DNA of 64,000 bases from Tenacibaculum sp. 190524A02b (GTDB lineage: Bacteria; Bacteroidota; Bacteroidia; Flavobacteriales; Flavobacteriaceae). Of the stretch, positions 7,883 to 58,839 are shown in pieces; position 1 is the stretch's first letter; each line of letters begins with the position of its first letter. The stretch covers positions 4,282,001 through 4,346,000 of the forward strand of contig NZ_OZ038525.1 in assembly GCF_964036645.1 (NCBI RefSeq), written 5' to 3'. The position numbers were made by a program, and so were the translations under genes. The notes under the pieces are model-generated. The model searched no databases and was not told where the DNA came from. It worked only from the letters and a program-made list of their open reading frames with translations.

Positions 7883-7911
7883 CCCCTTAAATTATCATTA
7901 AAAGTTGAACA

Positions 7912-8652
7912 ATGAGTGTTAGAAAATTGCTTGGTTTCCTGTTTTTAGTAGGGATGTTAGTGTCTTGTGGGGTATTACCTCAAAAAAATACGTACCATGC
8001 TACATCAAAATCTGTAGAATTAGGTGTAGTTGGCAATAGAAAAATTTCGGTGTATAAAACCGATTTTGATGTGACTAGTATACCAGTGTATAAAAACTTA
8101 ATAAAAGTAACTACCGTAGAAAAAAGTTTTACTAAGAGTATTTATAAAAACTATTTAGATGCAACCAAAGAGAAAAAAGGCATACATAAAGTAAATTACA
8201 TAGATAGTTTAGAGGTAAAGCCAACATATATTGATCTTATTCTAGAAGATAAAGTAGCGGTAATAAAAGCACTAAATCAAGAAGAAAATGAATCGGTATT
8301 TAAATATGTGAAAAATATACCAGAAGCTAAGTTAGTTTCAGCATTACGAATGGTAAGCACACCAGAAGTTAAAAAACAATTGCAACAAGCAGATGCCATG
8401 TATGTAAAAACAAATAACCAAAAAAATCAAAAGGTATATTTGTTTAATAAAGAAAAACAAATAGGTGTGTTAGATATTTCTAAAACGACCATATTTGGAT
8501 ACCAAGTATCTTCTTTTTGTTGGGAAATAACAGAAAGAGAAAAAATTAAGTTAGCTACCTTATTAAACGAAGGAGAAAACTGTACTTCAAATACTAAAAG
8601 AAACCCTAAAAAGTTAGAAAAAGAACTAATAGATCGTAGGTTAAAGTTTTAG
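7912..8652 (+). CDS. Lipoprotein of unknown function
   Basis: A 246-residue protein with a lipoprotein signal: SVRKLLGFLFLVGMLVSCG, lipid Cys at residue 19. The mature part is Lys-rich, with no known domain I can name. The C-terminus ends in a basic helix (LEKELIDRRLKF). Two more cysteines near the C-terminus (C201, C222) could form a disulphide. It is followed 62 bases later by another lipoprotein gene and then a fibre-like gene, all in the same direction, so the three may form one transcription unit handling cell-surface material. That is inference from order only. Confidence 0.6.
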   Translation: MSVRKLLGFLFLVGMLVSCGVLPQKNTYHATSKSVELGVVGNRKISVYKTDFDVTSIPVYKNLIKVTTVEKSFTKSIYKNYLDATKEKKGIHKVNYIDSLEVKPTYIDLILEDKVAVIKALNQEENESVFKYVKNIPEAKLVSALRMVSTPEVKKQLQQADAMYVKTNNQKNQKVYLFNKEKQIGVLDISKTTIFGYQVSSFCWEITEREKIKLATLLNEGENCTSNTKRNPKKLEKELIDRRLKF

Positions 8653-52817: not shown

Positions 52818-53375
52818 ATGAAAATAATAGCCACTAACCTTGGAGAACGTAAAGAAATCAATTGGAAAGGAAAAATGGTAACCACAGGGATCTATAAATT
52901 TCCAGTAGATCAACCTGTATTTTTAGATGAACAAGAGGTAAAAGGAGATGCTATTTGTAACCGAGAACACCATGGAGGAGAAGACCAAGCAGTATATGCC
53001 TATTCAGAAAAACATTACAAGTATTGGAAAGCTTTATATCCAGATTTAGAATGGCAATACGGAATGTTTGGAGAAAACCTAACCATGGATGATTTAGATG
53101 AATCCAAAACCCATGTGGGCGATAGGTTTAAAATAGGAGAAGTGGTAATTGAGGTAACTAAACCAAGACAACCTTGTATGAAGTTAGGAGTACGATTTAA
53201 TGATATGAAAATTGTTAAACAATTTTGGCAACAGGATTATCCTGGTGTGTATTTTAAAGTATTGCAAACAGGGTATGTGCAAACAGGTGATGTATTAGAG
53301 CAAATTAAATCCTGTTCAGAAAACCCAACCATTGCACAAGTGTACCAAGAAAAAAGAACTAAAAAAGGAATGTAG
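52818..53375 (+). CDS. MOSC-domain protein (YiiM-like)
   Basis: A 185-residue single MOSC domain. The block GDAICNREHHGGEDQAVYAYSEKHYKYW (about 44-71), MFGENLTMDDL (about 84-94) and KPRQPCMKLGVRF with the family's conserved Cys (about 115-127) are all present. MOSC proteins bind molybdenum cofactor or reduce N-hydroxylated bases, as E. coli YiiM does. It is the last core gene before the repeat-rich island. Confidence 0.9.
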   Translation: MKIIATNLGERKEINWKGKMVTTGIYKFPVDQPVFLDEQEVKGDAICNREHHGGEDQAVYAYSEKHYKYWKALYPDLEWQYGMFGENLTMDDLDESKTHVGDRFKIGEVVIEVTKPRQPCMKLGVRFNDMKIVKQFWQQDYPGVYFKVLQTGYVQTGDVLEQIKSCSENPTIAQVYQEKRTKKGM

Positions 53376-53401
53376 CCAAAAGTAAGCTGTATTAAGTTGT
53401 T

Positions 53402-53481
53402 AGTGATTAGTTTTTATTTAATAGGAAATCTAGTAGCTTTGTAAGTATACAAAGGAAATAATAGTAATTGCTATTATATTT
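53402..53481 (+). repeat. Island repeat copy 1 (promoter half only)
   Basis: Contains TTTTTA...GGAAATC, TAGCTTTG (53434-53441) and the tail GTACAAAGGAAATAATAG-type sequence that ends in the near-palindrome AATAGTAATTGCTATT. It matches the 3' halves of the copies at 54655 and 56624. The terminator-like 5' half is missing. The -7 box lies 75 bases before the lipoprotein ATG at 53516. Confidence 0.8.
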
Positions 53482-53515
53482 TTGTTGTATATAAGAAAAA
53501 AACTAATTCTTAAAA

Positions 53516-53881
53516 ATGAGAATATTTCTTTTGATAACAGTTTTGATCTTAACTTCTTGTGTTGGTACAAACAAGAAATTGAATTTTCCTGTCGAAATGG
53601 AAGATATTAGAGAAGTAGCATTAACTAGACTAGACAAAGAGTCAGAAGGTAAGTTTGCTAATATAAAGGTATTAACCCGAGAACAGACTAAAGATCTTTT
53701 AGAGGTGTTAAAAAATGCAAAACCTGTTGGGCCAATGAAATTTATACCCGACTATTACATTGTATTTACAACAAAAGAAAATGAGACAAGAAGGATTAAG
53801 ATAAATAAGAATAAAATTAAGGGTTATGAAGATGACTTTTCCTATGAAATTGAACAACTTGAATTTTTAGAAAAGTTTTAA
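53516..53881 (+). CDS. Small lipoprotein of the cassette island
   Basis: A 121-residue protein with lipoprotein signal MRIFLLITVLILTSC (Cys at 15). The mature part is a mixed alpha/beta domain with several Lys/Arg and contains FIPDYYIVFTTKENETRRIKI. No family is recognised. It lies between repeat copies 1 and 2 and seems to be one unit of the cassette-like array. Confidence 0.6.
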   Translation: MRIFLLITVLILTSCVGTNKKLNFPVEMEDIREVALTRLDKESEGKFANIKVLTREQTKDLLEVLKNAKPVGPMKFIPDYYIVFTTKENETRRIKINKNKIKGYEDDFSYEIEQLEFLEKF

Positions 53882-53911
53882 AATAAAGAAGTTAGTATAT
53901 AACACTCTTAT

Positions 53912-54035
53912 ATTATTTCCTAGTATTATTACCGCTAGTTTTAAAAACTAGTGACGTAAAATTGTTGTAAAAAAATAAGTTAAGGTATTACGCTACCAGT
54001 AAGTATTAAGCTGTAACAGTAATTATTGTTATATT
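53912..54035 (+). repeat. Island repeat copy 2 (divergent)
   Basis: Begins TACCGCTAGTTTTAAAAACT with a perfect palindrome (CTAGTTTT-A-AAAACTAG, 53935-53951) followed by GTGACG. It ends with AACAGTAATTATTGTTATATTT, a diverged form of the AATAGTAATTGCTATTAT tail in copies 1 and 4. The TAGCTTTG part is not preserved. Confidence 0.65.
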
Positions 54036-54106
54036 TATAAGCTAAAATTACAAGTAGAAGTTATCAAGTTTTACTTTGAAATTTAATTTAAATAGTGAGG
54101 GTTGTT

Positions 54107-54388
54107 ATGAAGAAAACTAAGAAAAAATCTGATTCCATATTTGATAGCTTAGATATATTATCAGAAAGTTTTGAAGGCTTACTGTTTGGTATACCATATT
54201 TTATTACGACTTCAATAGGAACTTTAATTAAGGTGCTTTTTTTAAGCTTGATTTCATTATTAACACTCAATCAATTAATAAAATTAAAAAAGCTATGGAG
54301 TAAAAAATACTTAATGTTGAATATTGCTGATCCTTGGAATTGTGTTTTAACAATTATTGTTTTTGTTATACTTTTAAGTTTAGAATGA
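54107..54388 (+). CDS. Small membrane protein of the cassette island (first of an overlapping pair)
   Basis: A 93-residue protein with a basic N-terminus (MKKTKKKSDS) and two to three hydrophobic helices (GLLFGIPYFITTSIGTLIKVLFLSLISLLTL and CVLTIIVFVILLSL). A GTG 12 bases earlier is also open but the ATG has the better context. Its stop overlaps the start of the next gene in ATGA (54385-54388), so the two are translated together. No family recognised. Confidence 0.55.
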   Translation: MKKTKKKSDSIFDSLDILSESFEGLLFGIPYFITTSIGTLIKVLFLSLISLLTLNQLIKLKKLWSKKYLMLNIADPWNCVLTIIVFVILLSLE

Positions 54389-54645
54389 ATCAGAAGAATA
54401 AAAGGATTAAAATATTTGTATTGCTATTTTTTATATTGTGTTTAGGGGTATCTATCCTTATTTACAAGGTTACTGTGGGGTTTGGAGAAGCGTTACTTCA
54501 AGGGACTAAAGCAATAATAAAAGTAAATGAGGAGTGGAAAAAAAAGAATATCAATCCTATTGATTCTATTAAGTGTGAAATTATTAAGAAAATAGATTCT
54601 TTAGGGTTAGAACATGACACTATATTTCGTAATAAATTAGATTAA
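54385..54645 (+). CDS. Small membrane protein of the cassette island (second of an overlapping pair)
   Basis: An 86-residue protein. The ATG at 54385 overlaps the stop of the previous gene. One helix (IFVLLFFILCLGVSILIYKV, about 10-29) is followed by a helical outer or cytoplasmic part ending in LGLEHDTIF. It has no recognised family. Together with its partner it could form a small membrane complex, such as a toxin-immunity or phage-defence unit, but nothing in the sequence proves it. Confidence 0.55.
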   Translation: MNQKNKRIKIFVLLFFILCLGVSILIYKVTVGFGEALLQGTKAIIKVNEEWKKKNINPIDSIKCEIIKKIDSLGLEHDTIFRNKLD

Positions 54646-54654
54646 ATTCGTCTT

Positions 54655-54793
54655 TTTCCTATAATATTGTTATCACTAGTTTTTAAAAATCAGTAACGTT
54701 TAAGTTTGGTGTAAAAAATAGTAGCTTACTCATTATGGGGATTCAAACATTTTATAGTTTTTAATTAATAGGAAATCTAGTAGCTTTGTAAGT
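54655..54793 (+). repeat. Island repeat copy 3
   Basis: Runs from TATCACTAGTTTTTAAAAAT through CAGTAACGTTTAAGTTTGG, TAGTAGCTTACTCATTATGG and ATTCAAACATTTTATAG to TAGCTTTG (54781-54788). It is nearly the same as copy 4 at 56624 over about 135 bases. The -7 box is 72 bases before the DUF1963 ATG. Confidence 0.88.
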
Positions 54794-54798
54794 GTAAT

Positions 54799-54837
54799 GG
54801 GAATAAACACACTGTGTTTATCCCTACGTTGTGTACC
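54799..54837 (+). other. Hairpin plus GTTGTGTACC boundary in front of the DUF1963 gene
   Basis: GGGAATAAACACA and TGTGTTTATCCC form a stem (54799-54824). After TAC comes GTTGTGTACC (54828-54837), which returns as its exact reverse complement GGTACACAAC at 55699-55708, just after the DUF1963 stop. This is the boundary pattern of an integron-type gene cassette. Confidence 0.55.
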
Positions 54838-54859
54838 ATATAAAAACCGAACGTAAAGA

Positions 54860-55690
54860 ATGAACTTTTGGAAAAAATTATTTAGTGGTAAAGAAAATAA
54901 ACCAAAAACTGAATCACATTTTGACAAATATCGAAAAGAACTAAATGAATTGAATTTAAAATCCATTTCTGATTTAGAAGATTTAGTTAAACCATTAATA
55001 AGACAAACAACCAAACTCGAAATTCAACCAGCTTCAAGACCTCCTGAAAATTCTCAATTAGAATCTCATTTCGGAGGAAACCCTTACTTTGAAAAAGGTG
55101 AGGAATGGCCAAAAGGTAAAAACGGAAAATATTTGGACTTCATTTTTCAAGTTTTCAACTCATCTGAATTGGAGTTGCCAAAAGGTATAGAATTAGTACA
55201 GTTCTTTTATGATTGGGAGGAATTTCCATGGGACACTAACGATAATGGCTGGTTAGTAAAAACATACAAACAAGTTGAGAAGGGAAAAGCTGAATTAATT
55301 GTTAAACCAGTAGAAATAGAAAAGTCAAAATTTTGCAAAATAGAATTTAAACCAACTCAAACATTACCTGATTGGGAAGGAATTGATTTGTTTGGAAATA
55401 ATGCATCGAAATTATCGTGTGTATTAAATGAAAATGAACCTTGGGATAGTTACGACCAAATTGTGACAAGGTTAATTGGAAAACAAGACTATCAAAGTCA
55501 ACTTGGAGGTTATCCAAAATGGGTTCAAGGAGAATCAACTCCAAGAAATAACGAAGGAAACCCAATGAAACTTCTATTTCAAATTGATTCTGAAGATAAT
55601 GCTGGAATAATGTGGGGCGATGTTGGACTAATTTATGTCTTTTATGATGAAAAATCGGAAAGAATCGAATTTAGTTTACAATGCCATTAG
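54860..55690 (+). CDS. DUF1963 (YwqG-like) protein
   Basis: A 276-residue soluble protein of the DUF1963/YwqG family. The N-terminal helix-rich part is followed by FGGNPYFEKGEEWP (about 71-84) and the hallmark LGGYPKWVQGESTP (about 214-227) and LLFQIDSEDNAGIMWGDVGLIYVF (about 239-262). No enzymatic activity is known, and members are often found among immunity genes of polymorphic-toxin systems. The gene is bounded by GTTGTGTACC and its reverse complement and follows island repeat copy 3. Confidence 0.85.
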   Translation: MNFWKKLFSGKENKPKTESHFDKYRKELNELNLKSISDLEDLVKPLIRQTTKLEIQPASRPPENSQLESHFGGNPYFEKGEEWPKGKNGKYLDFIFQVFNSSELELPKGIELVQFFYDWEEFPWDTNDNGWLVKTYKQVEKGKAELIVKPVEIEKSKFCKIEFKPTQTLPDWEGIDLFGNNASKLSCVLNENEPWDSYDQIVTRLIGKQDYQSQLGGYPKWVQGESTPRNNEGNPMKLLFQIDSEDNAGIMWGDVGLIYVFYDEKSERIEFSLQCH

Positions 55691-55698
55691 AAAAAAAC

Positions 55699-55833
55699 GG
55701 TACACAACAAGAGGGTATAGTTTATTTTTGCTAATAAGTTTATTTAGAAAAGTAGTTACTAAACTTAAAGTTTGGTTTTATTAGCTAAATGACAGTCAAA
55801 ACACCAAAACAAACCATACCCCAAGCGTTAGCG
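55699..55833. repeat. attC-like recombination site between the DUF1963 and SUKH genes
   Basis: Outer cores ACACAAC (55702-55708) and GCGTTAGCG (55825-55833; GTT at 55827) enclose a long imperfect hairpin: GGGTATAGTTTATTTTTG (55713-55730) with CCAAAACAAACCATACCC (55804-55821), 15 of 18 pairs plus two wobbles on the bottom strand; GCTAATAA (55730-55737) with TTATTAGC (55778-55785); and a central AAACTTAAAGTTT (about 55761-55773). Length is about 130 bases, in the attC range. No integrase is in the window, and the outer right core departs from GTTRRRY. Confidence 0.55.
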
Positions 55834-55852
55834 ATTATTAGAGAAAAACTAT

Positions 55853-56578
55853 ATGACAAATCTTGAAATAATTAAGAAACTCAAAGAATCCACTTTCACA
55901 GATGAAGATGGAGAAAAATATCAACTTGAATTTCAAGACGGATTGACCGATTCAGAAATTGATCAACTAAAAGGACAATTCCCAAGTAAAAATATTGACG
56001 GTGAAATAATTGAAATACTAAAAGAAACCAGAGGCTGGGACGGTTATGGCCCTGAAATGGTTTATTTCGATTCCATTGGTCAGTTCGGATTTTGGGAATT
56101 ATCTGCAAATTCTCTTACTCTTGGCCACGATGGATTTGGAAATCACTGGATTCTAGATTTGAGCGAAGACGGAAAAGCTAATAAAGTGTTTTTTGCTTGT
56201 CATGACCCAGCAGTATTTTTAGTTAATTCACAAAACCTAAATGAATATTTAAGTCATCTTTTGGAATTTTACGAAAGTCCAGACAAATGTCACTTGAATG
56301 AAATACACGATAAAACAGTGATGACTATTTGGGATGAAAACAGACTATGCTCATCCAAAAGCGAATTTGAAAGTCGAAATCCTGAATTCAAAGATTTCCT
56401 CAATAAATTTAACGGAGACGAATGGACTGTCGCTGATTTGCGAGCAGGAAGAAATAAAGATGGTTTTGCTTGGGGAAAGTTTGGTGCGAATCAATTTACG
56501 GAAAGACATCCAACCGAATTGGTTTGGGTTATAAAGAATAAGAAAAAAGGTTTTTTATCGAGGATATTCGGAAAATAA
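55853..56578 (+). CDS. SUKH (SMI1/KNR4) family protein
   Basis: A 241-residue protein. The SMI1/KNR4 core is seen in LTDSEIDQLKGQFPSKNIDGEIIEILKETRGWDG (about 31-64), then GHDGFGNHWILDL (about 92-104) and VFFACHDPAVF (about 113-123). Members are common immunity proteins that block contact-dependent or polymorphic toxins. No toxin gene is adjacent, which is usual for orphan immunity genes kept in arrays. It starts 20 bases after the attC-like site. After its stop TGCTAATAC may be the degenerate left core matching its own GTTAGC boundary. Confidence 0.85.
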   Translation: MTNLEIIKKLKESTFTDEDGEKYQLEFQDGLTDSEIDQLKGQFPSKNIDGEIIEILKETRGWDGYGPEMVYFDSIGQFGFWELSANSLTLGHDGFGNHWILDLSEDGKANKVFFACHDPAVFLVNSQNLNEYLSHLLEFYESPDKCHLNEIHDKTVMTIWDENRLCSSKSEFESRNPEFKDFLNKFNGDEWTVADLRAGRNKDGFAWGKFGANQFTERHPTELVWVIKNKKKGFLSRIFGK

Positions 56579-56623
56579 AAATAACAAACTGCTAATACTG
56601 TATATAAAATCATAGCCCCGCTA

Positions 56624-56793
56624 TTCCTTAGTATAGCTACCGCTAGTTTTAAAAATCAGTAACGTTTAAGTTTGGTGTAAAAAATAGTAGCTTACTCATT
56701 ATGGATATTCAAACATTTTATAGTTTTTGATTAGTTAAAAATCTAGTAGATTTGTAAGTGTACAAAGGAAATAATAGTAATTGCTATTATGTT
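56624..56793 (+). repeat. Island repeat copy 4 (the most complete)
   Basis: Starts TTAGTATAGCTACCGCTAG, continues with TTTTAAAAATCAGTAACG, TTTAAGTTTGGTGTAAAAAA, TTCAAACATTTTATAGTTTT, TAGATTTG (56747-56754) and ends GTACAAAGGAAATAATAG with the near-palindrome AATAGTAATTGCTATT. It contains all parts found separately in the other copies. The -7 box lies 61 bases before the ATG at 56816. Confidence 0.9.
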
Positions 56794-56815
56794 GTTATTA
56801 GGAATTATTGAATAA

Positions 56816-57418
56816 ATGATAAAATTTAAAGCGACTAAAAATAAATCGGACAAATTAAAGTGGTTGATTTATATTCTAATTGGATTAGGATTATTAATTT
56901 TTATTATAAAATATTCGGATTGGCATATTATATCAAAAATATTGATTTCAATTCCCTTAATAATTAATTTATTATTTGATGTTTTTTACTTCAAAAAAGT
57001 TGGATATATAATTAATGAAATACATTTTGGTGATTCTGAAGTTGAAGTATTTGACCTTAAAAAAAATAAAAAAAGAATTACTTACTCAAATTTGAAGTAT
57101 TCAATAAGAAAAAGAAAATTTGACAAACATAAAATTGAAATTGAACTAAAAAATAAAAGAAGCTTAAAATTCAAGACTTTTGGAAGATTACACATTAAGA
57201 ATTGGGATAATATTTTTGACATTGAAAAAGAGTTAGAACAAAGAAAAGTTGTAAGAGTTGAATGGAAACCAATGACTTTATGGGGTAAATACTGGGGGAT
57301 TTTTATCGATTTATTTTTCATAACCTCAGGTGGTGGAGATATTGGAATGACTGAATATCAAGAAAACTCTATTAAAGAGGTAACAGAAAACCCAGTAGAA
57401 GAAGAAAATAATGCCTAG
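56816..57418 (+). CDS. Membrane protein with two helices and a PH-like domain (hypothetical)
   Basis: A 200-residue protein. Two neighbouring helices (LKWLIYILIGLGLLIFII, about 14-31, and ISKILISIPLIINLLFDVFYF, about 39-59) are followed by a soluble beta-rich domain (IHFGDSEVEVFDLKKNKKRITYSNLKYSIRKRKF) like bacterial PH domains of the EbsA/YdbT type. The tail is acidic. The PH-like call is from pattern only. It is one unit of the repeat-separated island. Confidence 0.55.
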   Translation: MIKFKATKNKSDKLKWLIYILIGLGLLIFIIKYSDWHIISKILISIPLIINLLFDVFYFKKVGYIINEIHFGDSEVEVFDLKKNKKRITYSNLKYSIRKRKFDKHKIEIELKNKRSLKFKTFGRLHIKNWDNIFDIEKELEQRKVVRVEWKPMTLWGKYWGIFIDLFFITSGGGDIGMTEYQENSIKEVTENPVEEENNA

Positions 57419-57533
57419 CAAGATGTAAACGAAATATTCCTATGTGTTATGCTGGAAGTTAGTTGTGTATTTGTCAAGTCAGCGCCACAAGTTTAACTGT
57501 TTTAACTCTAAATTTTAAAAATTAAAAAAGGAA

Positions 57534-57944
57534 ATGACTTTAGAATATTGGAATGAATTAGCCAAACAAACAATTTTGATAAGTTCATTACTAAGTGGGT
57601 TTTCAATTACAGTTGTAGCAAACTTATTAGTATCTGATAAAAACAACAAGCTATTTAATCGAATTTTAAAATCAGCAACATTGTCTGCAGGATGTTTCTT
57701 AATCACAGTTTTTGCAATGATGCAGATATCAATGATAACAACACCTGGTGGGTATTTAAAAAACGTTACCGAAAATGACTTTTTAGTTCCACGAATAATT
57801 GGAGTCATAGCCTTTTTTATTGGGTTATTCTCCCTATCAACTATGATTTCTTTATCTGGATGGACTAAATCAAAAAAAGTTGGAATATATACAACAGTAA
57901 TCGGAATATTAACACTCTTATTTATTCTAATAACTCTTACTTAA
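57534..57944 (+). CDS. Four-helix membrane protein of the cassette island (hypothetical)
   Basis: A 136-residue protein with four predicted membrane helices (about 12-34, 45-68, 86-107 and 113-135), e.g. TILISSLLSGFSITVVANLLV and VGIYTTVIGILTLLFILITL. It has almost no soluble part, and no family is recognised. Its stop codon lies at the edge of repeat copy 5, which would act as its terminator. Confidence 0.55.
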   Translation: MTLEYWNELAKQTILISSLLSGFSITVVANLLVSDKNNKLFNRILKSATLSAGCFLITVFAMMQISMITTPGGYLKNVTENDFLVPRIIGVIAFFIGLFSLSTMISLSGWTKSKKVGIYTTVIGILTLLFILITLT

Positions 57945-58052
57945 AAAACTAGTGAGGTTAAAGTGTGGTCTAAAAATAGTAGTTTATTTATTATTTATAT
58001 TCAAACATTTTATAGTTTTTAAATTAAAGAGGAATCTAGTAGATTTGTGTGT
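57940..58052 (+). repeat. Island repeat copy 5
   Basis: TTAAAAAACTAGTGAGG, GTGTGGTCTAAAAATAGTAG, TATTCAAACATTTTATAG, GGAATCTAGTAGATTTGTG. The -7 box TAGATTTG is at 58040-58047, 38 bases before the ATG at 58085. It is shorter and more divergent than copies 3 and 4. Confidence 0.8.
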
Positions 58053-58084
58053 AAATTGTTGTTTTACAATATTAAAAACATGAA

Positions 58085-58636
58085 ATGAGACGATACCTAA
58101 TATTTATTTTTTTGATTAGTTTTTTTAACTGTTTTTCACAAAATTATAGATTAATAAATAAAGCAAACGCAATTTTAAATACTGAGAAACCTGATTTCAA
58201 AAAAGTTCAAAAGTTATTAAAAAGAGCTCAAAGACAAGATTATGGGTTTTGTGGCAATGCTAAACTTTCGGCATTCAGTAAAATAGCATACCTTGAAAGT
58301 AAAATGGCGTATTTAAAATCTGATTATAAAAGGTGTATTGAGATTTTAGACTCTGAAGAAGTTTGGATAAAGGCTAAATTATCAGATTCTTTAAAGGTGT
58401 TAAGTCTTATAAAAATTCATGGAAAAGAGAAAATTAAAACAATGATAGAGAAGAAGTCTAAAAAATTGATTACGAGAGATTCAGATTATCTCTACAAAAA
58501 AATATGTTTAAATCTAGCAGAAATAAAGTATAACTTTTGTTTTAATGATCAAGATGAATCTTTTGACTATAAAAAAGTAGTAACCATTAGAGAAATTATA
58601 GAAAAAACGAATTTTAATAATTTGATTTTTGATTAA
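58085..58636 (+). CDS. Small secreted helical protein of the cassette island (hypothetical)
   Basis: A 183-residue protein with a signal peptide (RRYLIFIFLISFFNCFSQ). The mature part is all helix, with TPR-like pairs (ANAILNTEKPDFKKVQKLLKRAQ, then KIAYLESKMAYLKSDYKRCIEIL). No family is recognised. It is the last gene of the repeat-rich island and uses the promoter in repeat copy 5. Confidence 0.55.
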   Translation: MRRYLIFIFLISFFNCFSQNYRLINKANAILNTEKPDFKKVQKLLKRAQRQDYGFCGNAKLSAFSKIAYLESKMAYLKSDYKRCIEILDSEEVWIKAKLSDSLKVLSLIKIHGKEKIKTMIEKKSKKLITRDSDYLYKKICLNLAEIKYNFCFNDQDESFDYKKVVTIREIIEKTNFNNLIFD

Positions 58637-58839
58637 AAAACGATAGTGCTACAAAACTACATAGTCCTCCCTTCGGATAAGAGTAAGTAGCAACAATAAT
58701 GAACCCGTTTACTTTGATTTAGCATAGTCTATTCTTTATTATTTCTTTTTAATAATTTATTTAAGACTTTGGTATGTTTTTTGATAGTATTCAAAACCAA
58801 TAACTGTTAAATTTTTAGAAGGGTTTAAAACGTTATGTC

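What the first reader, a model, noticed from the sequence alone, without database searches (positions are those of the whole stretch)
53402..58052. Repeat units carrying a terminator-like palindrome and a promoter separate small accessory genes
Five copies of an intergenic repeat (up to ~170 bases, two nearly identical) sit between unrelated small genes. The 5' half has the CTAGTTTT/AAAACTAG palindrome, the 3' half has TAGCTTTG or TAGATTTG, both full -7 boxes. Each copy would end one transcript and start the next, making every gene a self-contained expression cassette. I know of no described element of this form.
Basis: seen in the sequence. Interest (0 to 1): 0.75.

Follow-up and report, generated by a model that had tools for sequence, protein, structure and literature searches.

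The report
Scattered docking sites for gene cassettes
The repeats look like a promoter joined to the docking site of a little-noticed type of integron (a bacterial gene-capture system), and several of the small genes between them look like captured gene cassettes, in a genome whose only recognised enzyme of this type is broken.

Summary
The repeats are real. Their 3' half is not local: 13 such sites lie across this 5-Mb genome. The same layout (a TAnnTTTG -7 box in many, a palindrome, then G|TT) follows the stop codon of an XerA-like tyrosine recombinase in related Flavobacteriaceae. There it opens integron-like arrays of co-oriented cassettes, each start complementary to the R'' end of its own attC (15 of 16 arrays; 61 cassettes). 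The window's DUF1963 gene has this signature (10/10), and a homologue with an identical 12-nt start sits between canonical attC ends in another genus. I conclude that the repeats are orphan promoter-plus-attI platforms of a Bacteroidota integron; the one related integrase gene found here carries stop codons. This is a variant: the integrase lacks the insertion typical of IntI, and the primary site is palindromic. Three orphan sites keep a 3' scrap of an integrase gene, suggesting solo attI sites left by decayed integrons. Other window units are too decayed to assign firmly. Recombination, promoter activity, action in trans and the cause of dispersal are untested.

The parts
53408..53484 (+). 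Station 1 (3' half only): -7 box TAGCTTTG 53434-53441, attI-like palindrome AATAATAGTAATTGCTATTAT 53457-53477, G of G|TT at 53484
   Evidence: model R1 E 7.8e-5
53516..53881 (+). Small gene without a Pfam family, behind station 1; a decayed R''-like end AGTATATAAC at 53894-53903 (2 differences from the expected TATATACAAC)
   Evidence: assignment as a cassette is weak
53914..53980 (+). 5' half copy with perfect palindrome CGCTAGTTTTAAAAACTAGTGACG 53933-53956; no -7 box
   Evidence: hairpin z -3.1
54107..54645 (+). Two overlapping small genes (54107-54388, 54385-54645); cassette ends not recognised
54655..54828 (+). Station 2, complete repeat: palindrome-like 54674-54698, -7 box TAGCTTTG 54781-54788, attI-like palindrome GGGAATAAACACACTGTGTTTATCCC 54799-54824, G of G|TT at 54828
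   Evidence: best own-genome match of model R1, E 4.6e-9
54829..55827 (+). Gene cassette with DUF1963 gene 54860-55690; start TTGTGTACC; attC from R'' GGTACACAAC 55699-55708 to L' CCATACCCC and G at 55827
   Evidence: 10/10 R'' match, stem score 9, Pfam E 3.1e-25; homologues in G040 share the 12-nt start
55828..56640 (+). Probable cassette with SUKH (SMI1/KNR4) gene 55853-56578; start TTAGCGATT; decayed R'' CTGCTAAT 56589-56596
   Evidence: Pfam SMI1_KNR4 E 4.2e-6; attC no longer folds better than shuffles (z -0.08)
56622..56794 (+). Station 3, complete repeat: palindrome-like 56641-56664, -7 box TAGATTTG 56747-56754, attI-like palindrome 56770-56790, G of G|TT at 56794
   Evidence: model R1 E 0.0019
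56795..57944 (+). Probable cassette with two small genes (56816-57418, 57534-57944); start TTATTAGGA; R'' TTCTAATAAC 57925-57934, which lies inside the end of the second gene
   Evidence: 8/8 R'' match, 9/10 over ten positions
57943..58068 (+). Station 4: damaged 5' palindrome 57943-57957, -7 box TAGATTTG 58040-58047, degenerate palindrome 58050-58068; no G|TT recognised
   Evidence: not found by model R1
58085..58636 (+). Small gene behind station 4
   Evidence: no family above its cut-off

Best explanation
The repeats are orphan primary recombination platforms (promoter Pc plus attI) of a Bacteroidota integron-like system, and the small genes between them are, or were, integron gene cassettes. 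In the intact form, seen in relatives, an XerA-like integrase gene is followed on the same strand by a promoter -7 box, a palindrome and a G|TT crossover point; cassettes with foldable attC ends are joined at G|TT and transcribed from the promoter just upstream. In this genome the one related integrase gene found carries stop codons, while about a dozen promoter-attI copies remain dispersed, each with captured accessory genes behind it, so the window reads promoter-cassette-promoter-cassette. Shown by sequence: attI layout shared with integrase-adjacent sites, cassette/attC signature, dispersal, broken integrase, DUF1963 cassette related across genera. Inferred: recombination itself, use of orphan sites in trans, promoter activity, and origin of orphan sites by loss of the integrase gene (solo attI).
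For: 15 own-genome matches; 13 sites at E<=0.01 with a covariance model. Same layout after the integrase stop in relatives: palindrome with 9-14-bp arms in 21 of 29 (20 of these without mismatch), box in 11 of 29 against 1.1 expected. In 16 chosen arrays, palindrome score >=9 at 13 of 16 attI against 1 of 453 random GTT; first-cassette signature in 15 of 16 against 26 of 325 opposite-strand starts; 61 cassettes, 20 of them in L116. Stations: exact 8/8 R'' in 17 of 30 against 5.3% of 860 mispaired controls. Window DUF1963 cassette 10/10; 2 of 3 G040 homologues (57% protein identity) have the identical 12-nt start and a 1-mismatch R'' between canonical attC ends. Integrase 3' scraps upstream of 3 stations. 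Only one match to the integrase piece in this genome at E<=1e-20, the broken copy itself.
Against: The integrase lacks the IntI-specific insertion and scores below the integron-integrase cut-off (6 of 6). Several window units have no recognisable attC, and the SUKH attC folds no better than shuffles (z -0.08); the window DUF1963 attC only moderately (z -1.84, 7 of 200 shuffles as good), against z -6.3 for one relative attC. 13 of 30 stations lack an exact R''; in L032 the exact hit lies inside a gene and the plausible attC end is 8/10. The random-start control is not zero (26 of 325 and 31 of 325). One array (L124) shows no cassette. Only 7 of 58 genus genomes have a station. No experiment.
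Confidence: 0.8

Rival explanations
1. The stations are themselves ORF-less promoter cassettes: mobile units bounded by G|TT on both sides that the integrase inserted between gene cassettes, rather than attI platforms left by decayed integrons.
For: In congener G219 two stations 1 kb apart each begin at a G|TT after an attC-like end and finish at the next G|TT (read by eye). In the window the 54.7 and 56.7 repeats have ACG|TTTAAG upstream and G|TT downstream. Promoter activity of ORF-less cassettes is a known topic (title in a reference list only).
Against: Three stations keep an integrase 3' scrap directly upstream, which fits solo attI. Own stations outside the window follow tandem repeats and chromosomal genes, without an attC end that I could see (6 upstream regions read). 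The station start is not clearly complementary to an R'' of its own.
Confidence: 0.15
2. Local tandem duplication of one promoter region, with unrelated genes brought in between by ordinary recombination; no site-specific system involved.
For: The two complete repeats are 89-93% identical and share a leader that is different at the stations elsewhere.
Against: Copies across the genome and family; start/R'' complementarity against controls; DUF1963 start shared across genera. A local duplication of a station may still have happened in addition.
Confidence: 0.03
3. The palindrome is an expression element, for example a 5' leader hairpin that stabilises the transcript, carried along with the promoter, and has no role in recombination.
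For: If transcription starts about 5 nt after the box, as the -12 to -5 position in PMC9723704 implies, the palindrome lies at the 5' end of the transcript.
Against: Cassettes start at the G|TT a few nt after the palindrome in the integrase arrays, and the palindrome varies in sequence between genera while keeping its position. This does not exclude a double role.
Confidence: 0.05

Closest known systems
Sedentary chromosomal integrons (IntI, attI, Pc, attC cassettes)
   Same: Integrase gene next to a primary site, co-oriented small-gene cassettes, start/R'' complementarity, foldable attC, G|TT junction. The Treponema integrons also have the integrase on the same strand as the cassettes (PMC3607928, passages).
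   Different: Integrase is XerA-like, about 110 residues longer at the N-terminus and without the IntI insertion; palindromic primary site; -7 box at the end of the integrase gene; promoter-attI copies dispersed without an integrase. That class 1 attI is not palindromic is recalled.
CALIN (attC clusters without integrase) and delta-attI cassettes of mobile integrons
   Same: Cassettes without a working integrase nearby (PMC9024848, passages); truncated attI sites used among cassettes (PMC12901181, abstract).
   Different: Here the repeated part is a promoter plus a complete attI-like site, spread over the chromosome.
rAID (recombinase-associated acquired interbacterial defence) of Bacteroidales
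   Different: I did not compare the rAID recombinase or its intergenic motifs; cargo here is mostly without a known family and immunity function was not tested.
attG insertions (cassettes at scattered chromosomal sites)
   Same: Cassettes lie at scattered chromosomal places. attG is named in the abstract of PMC12901181; the rest is recalled.
   Different: Here each place carries the same promoter-palindrome sequence, so it is a repeated dedicated site, not a chance target.

Membership tests
Integron | Cassettes whose start is complementary to the R'' of their own attC, with an L''/L' stem | tested here: met
   15 of 16 relatives' arrays, 61 cassettes (control 26 of 325); window DUF1963 cassette 10/10; several other window units decayed
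Integron | Integrase gene adjacent to a primary site attI | tested here: met
   in relatives; in this genome only beside a broken gene
Integron | IntI integrase with the IntI-specific insertion | tested here: not met
   the integron model aligns in two stretches and stays below its cut-off in 6 of 6; 23 residues where IntI4 has 66 between the aligned parts (1 protein)
Integron | Promoter Pc upstream of the first cassette | tested here: inconclusive
   -7 box in 11 of 29 against 1.1 expected; 18 of 29 lack the full box; no expression data
Integron | Integrase-mediated attI x attC recombination | not testable with these tools
   needs an assay
rAID system | Array of co-oriented immunity genes with repeated intergenic motifs | tested here: inconclusive
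   one SUKH and one DUF1963 gene in the window; 6 other window genes without a family above its cut-off
rAID system | Homology to the rAID recombinase of Bacteroides fragilis | not tested
   the reference protein was not fetched

The most novel reading that the evidence does not exclude
A multi-platform integron: an XerA-type integrase without the IntI insertion uses a palindromic attI and serves many dispersed promoter-attI landing pads in trans, so that captured cassettes are spread over the chromosome, each at first position behind its own promoter, instead of competing for one Pc in a single array. The system is widespread in Flavobacteriaceae and may be what underlies the rAID arrays of gut Bacteroidales.
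Probability: 0.35. Interest if true: 0.88.

Novelty: new variant of a known kind. Interest (0 to 1): 0.72.

Why it matters
[quoted passage not shown] Here 161 of 199 sampled family genomes encode a related recombinase (not all need be integron-linked) and 15 of 16 arrays that I opened show cassettes. If confirmed, a major marine and soil lineage has its own integrons run by a recombinase without the insertion described as essential for integron function (PMC8138268, passage), which makes the role of that insertion directly testable. Dispersed promoter-attI copies would show how captured genes can each be expressed from a first position.

Tried and rejected
Rfam on 52-60 kb: no match up to E 1. 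Terminator reading: no site. Defence-family search of 8 window proteins: none. Other recombinases of this genome as the cassette integrase: those I read look like XerC, XerD and two element integrases (by eye); two further partial matches (at 4832916 and 511324) were not examined; the integron family model also hits all 14 control genomes, so its hits alone prove nothing. The CTAGTTTT palindrome as a genome-wide element: 2 exact matches, plus one near-match at L029 within 295 kb searched. A weak integrase match upstream of L174 (E 0.001) was discounted because it lies far from the station. Named relatives: of 80 loci I tested 43 (6 too short), and 5 of 37 had an exact R'' right behind the integrase, 3 one mismatch, 29 none; that scan required C or T before GTT and misses AGTT sites. 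A looser scan of 24 of these loci found cassette-like pairs on the integrase strand in 14; its opposite-strand counts are no clean control, because attC sites are palindromic. Of five Bacteroidales loci in it, only L184 had a pair.

Known biases: model R1 was built with the -7 box inside, so box counts at sites found with it (9 of 15 relatives' stations, 12 of 15 own sites) lean towards the box; I rely. The hairpin caller misplaced L078 and L088, and misplaced the attI of L119 and L129, corrected. In one search, 26 of 30 starts were set by script and 4 by hand (L026, L030 without GTT; L028, L033 after a 40-nt palindromic filler). The 16 arrays and 15 relatives' stations were chosen by score and contig length, not at random. 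No control for palindromes was run on the 29 loci themselves, only on the 16 arrays.
Full report
Observation. The five repeats exist at the stated place. Two are complete (54655-54828 and 56622-56794) and three partial. Four have a full TAnnTTTG box. The palindrome of the 5' half is perfect only at 53933-53956; no terminator-like site was found in 53300-58700.

Not local. The complete repeat matches 15 places in the 5.04-Mb genome. Away from the window the shared part is the 3' half: a TTTTTAATTAGT-AAAAATCTAGTAGATTTGTA stretch, TATAATGGG, a palindrome such as ATAAACACATTGTGTTTAT, then for most CCCTACG or a variant and TT. A covariance model (R1) finds 13 sites at E<=0.01: 3 in the window, 1 beside a broken recombinase, 9 elsewhere. 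The copy at 58.0 kb is too degenerate for it.

Link to an integrase. At 126.5-127.1 kb lies a recombinase gene with stop codons inside (reading frames). Its open C-terminal piece has no other match in this genome at E<=1e-20 and matches 161 of 199 sampled family genomes, this one included; that count covers any close homologue, integron-linked or not. Directly after its end lies TATAATGGGGATAAACACCATTGTGTTTATTCCTTCG|TTGGCGTGC. In 29 relatives read the region after the integrase stop has a palindrome before a G|TT: score 9 or more in 21 of 29. One relative (L081) reads AAAAATCCATTAGATTTGTAGG, a spacer, GATAAACACACTAGTGTGTTTATC, CCTACG|TTGTG. So the window's TAGATTTG/TAGCTTTG corresponds to the last codons of the integrase gene (N-P-L-D-L-stop), which also read as a -7 box. 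A DNA search with an own-genome station independently hit this place in that genome (E 3.6e-5). In 6 of 29 relatives a box lies after the stop codon, outside the coding sequence (0.77 expected), and 8 of the 11 boxes are 17-19 nt from the palindrome; 18 of 29 have no full box.

Cassettes in relatives. Behind these integrases lie integron-like arrays. In L116 20 consecutive cassettes were walked with exact 8/8 start/R'' complementarity and an L''/L' stem (23 with a looser setting). Over 16 arrays of 15 genomes: 61 cassettes, 15 arrays with at least one; one step succeeded from 26 of 325 random starts on the opposite strand and from 31 of 325 on the same strand. Palindrome score at attI was 9 or more in 13 of 16 against 1 of 453 other GTT. 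One relative attC bottom strand folds at z -6.3. 9 of the first 10 L116 cassette proteins have no Pfam family. Among named organisms, Winogradskyella ursingii and Seonamhaeicola aphaedonensis have an exact signature right behind the integrase.

The window's genes. The DUF1963 unit starts TTGTGTACC and ends in GGTACACAAC-AAGAGGGTATAG...CCATACCCC-AAGCG. DUF1963 homologues occur in 4 of 199 family genomes, this one included. In G040, at two of three homologue places (57% protein identity), the start is identical over 12 nt (GTTGTGTACCAT) and an R'' with one mismatch is followed by a canonical attC stretch; the third place and the hits in G036 and G001 gave no such pair in the same scan. The protein is 92% identical in uncultured Tenacibaculum and 89% in Flavobacterium flavipallidum, while the neighbouring MOSC gene is at most 79% identical in the sampled congeners; this suggests transfer between genera. 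That the host is a Tenacibaculum is a guess. The SUKH unit starts TTAGCGATT and has a decayed R''; the unit from 56795 has a 9/10 R''; the others are too decayed. In 7 congeners with the left flank (MOSC in 7, GH3-like gene in 6) none of the 8 island genes was found; genes to the right of the island were not found there either, so this is not a clean empty site.

Orphan stations elsewhere. I fetched 15 stations of relatives away from their recognised integrase: 11 of 15 have an exact 8/8 R''. Of 15 own-genome sites (the integrase-adjacent one and two above E 0.01 included), 6 of 15. Mispaired control: 5.3% of 860. Integrase 3' scraps lie upstream of L163 (42 aa, 88% identical to an integrase of the same genome), L164 (56 aa, 77%, same) and the own site at 181565 (44 aa, 59%); the other stations showed no scrap near the site. 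This supports loss of the integrase gene with the promoter-attI part retained, at least for these three. Congener G219 has two stations 1 kb apart with a cassette between them (by eye), so the window's layout is not unique; but only 7 of 58 sampled genus genomes, this one included, had a station at E<=0.01 (stricter filters).

How it differs from known integrons. The integrase matches the XerA model (NF040815) above its cut-off and the integron-integrase model below its cut-off in 6 of 6 tested. [quoted passage not shown] The primary site is palindromic. The integrase points towards the cassettes, as in Treponema (PMC3607928, passages).

Literature. Searches (listings; 46 and 76 were cut to the top 15 and 10) showed no paper on Flavobacteriaceae cassette arrays of this kind or on dispersed promoter-attI copies. 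Integrase genes in the Bacteroidetes/Chlorobi group (PMC2426708, passage) and integrons in Bacteroidota (PMC8618304, passage) are on record, and several sources name these proteins 'site-specific tyrosine recombinase/integron integrase', so integrons in the phylum are not new in themselves. Most subscription papers and preprints are outside the library.

Unexplained. In 5 of 6 own stations whose upstream DNA I read, long runs of 21-nt or about 42-nt repeats precede the site; the sixth (L031) has only a short stretch of them. How the module was multiplied is unknown. Nothing was measured at the bench.

Noticed in passing
L032:9204-9365, L033:8628-9212; upstream of stations in L026, L027, L029, L030: Tandem repeat arrays (units of about 21 or 42 nt) directly upstream of own-genome stations, often with an AAACGAATATTATTCGAATAATATTCGTTT-like dyad between array and promoter.
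   Followed up: partly
L025:7504-8100 (genome 126.5-127.1 kb): Broken integron-type integrase gene with an attI-like site and a cassette behind it.
   Followed up: yes
L028 near 7908-7950 and L033 near its station: A 40-nt palindromic filler between two CG|TT-like junctions in front of the cassette gene; looks like a minimal cassette without a gene.
   Followed up: no
L315 (congener G219): Two promoter-attI stations 1 kb apart with a cassette between them, and the same leader sequence at both.
   Followed up: partly
L187, L193, L195, L198, L208, L214, L215, L216, L184: Cassette-like start/R'' pairs near related recombinases in Rufibacter, Flavobacterium aciduliphilum, Algibacter onchidii, Algoriphagus, Zunongwangia and several Bacteroidota assemblies.
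   Followed up: partly
L029:8963-8979 and L029:6606: Palindrome like the window's 5' half (CTAGTTTT..AAAACTAG) at two places around another station.
   Followed up: partly
window 54385-54645: Weak match to the type VI secretion family TssO, below its cut-off (E 0.0034).
   Followed up: no
L064:3063-6621: Two tyrosine recombinases next to a gene that by eye resembles a conjugation-type ATPase, probably an integrated mobile element.
   Followed up: no
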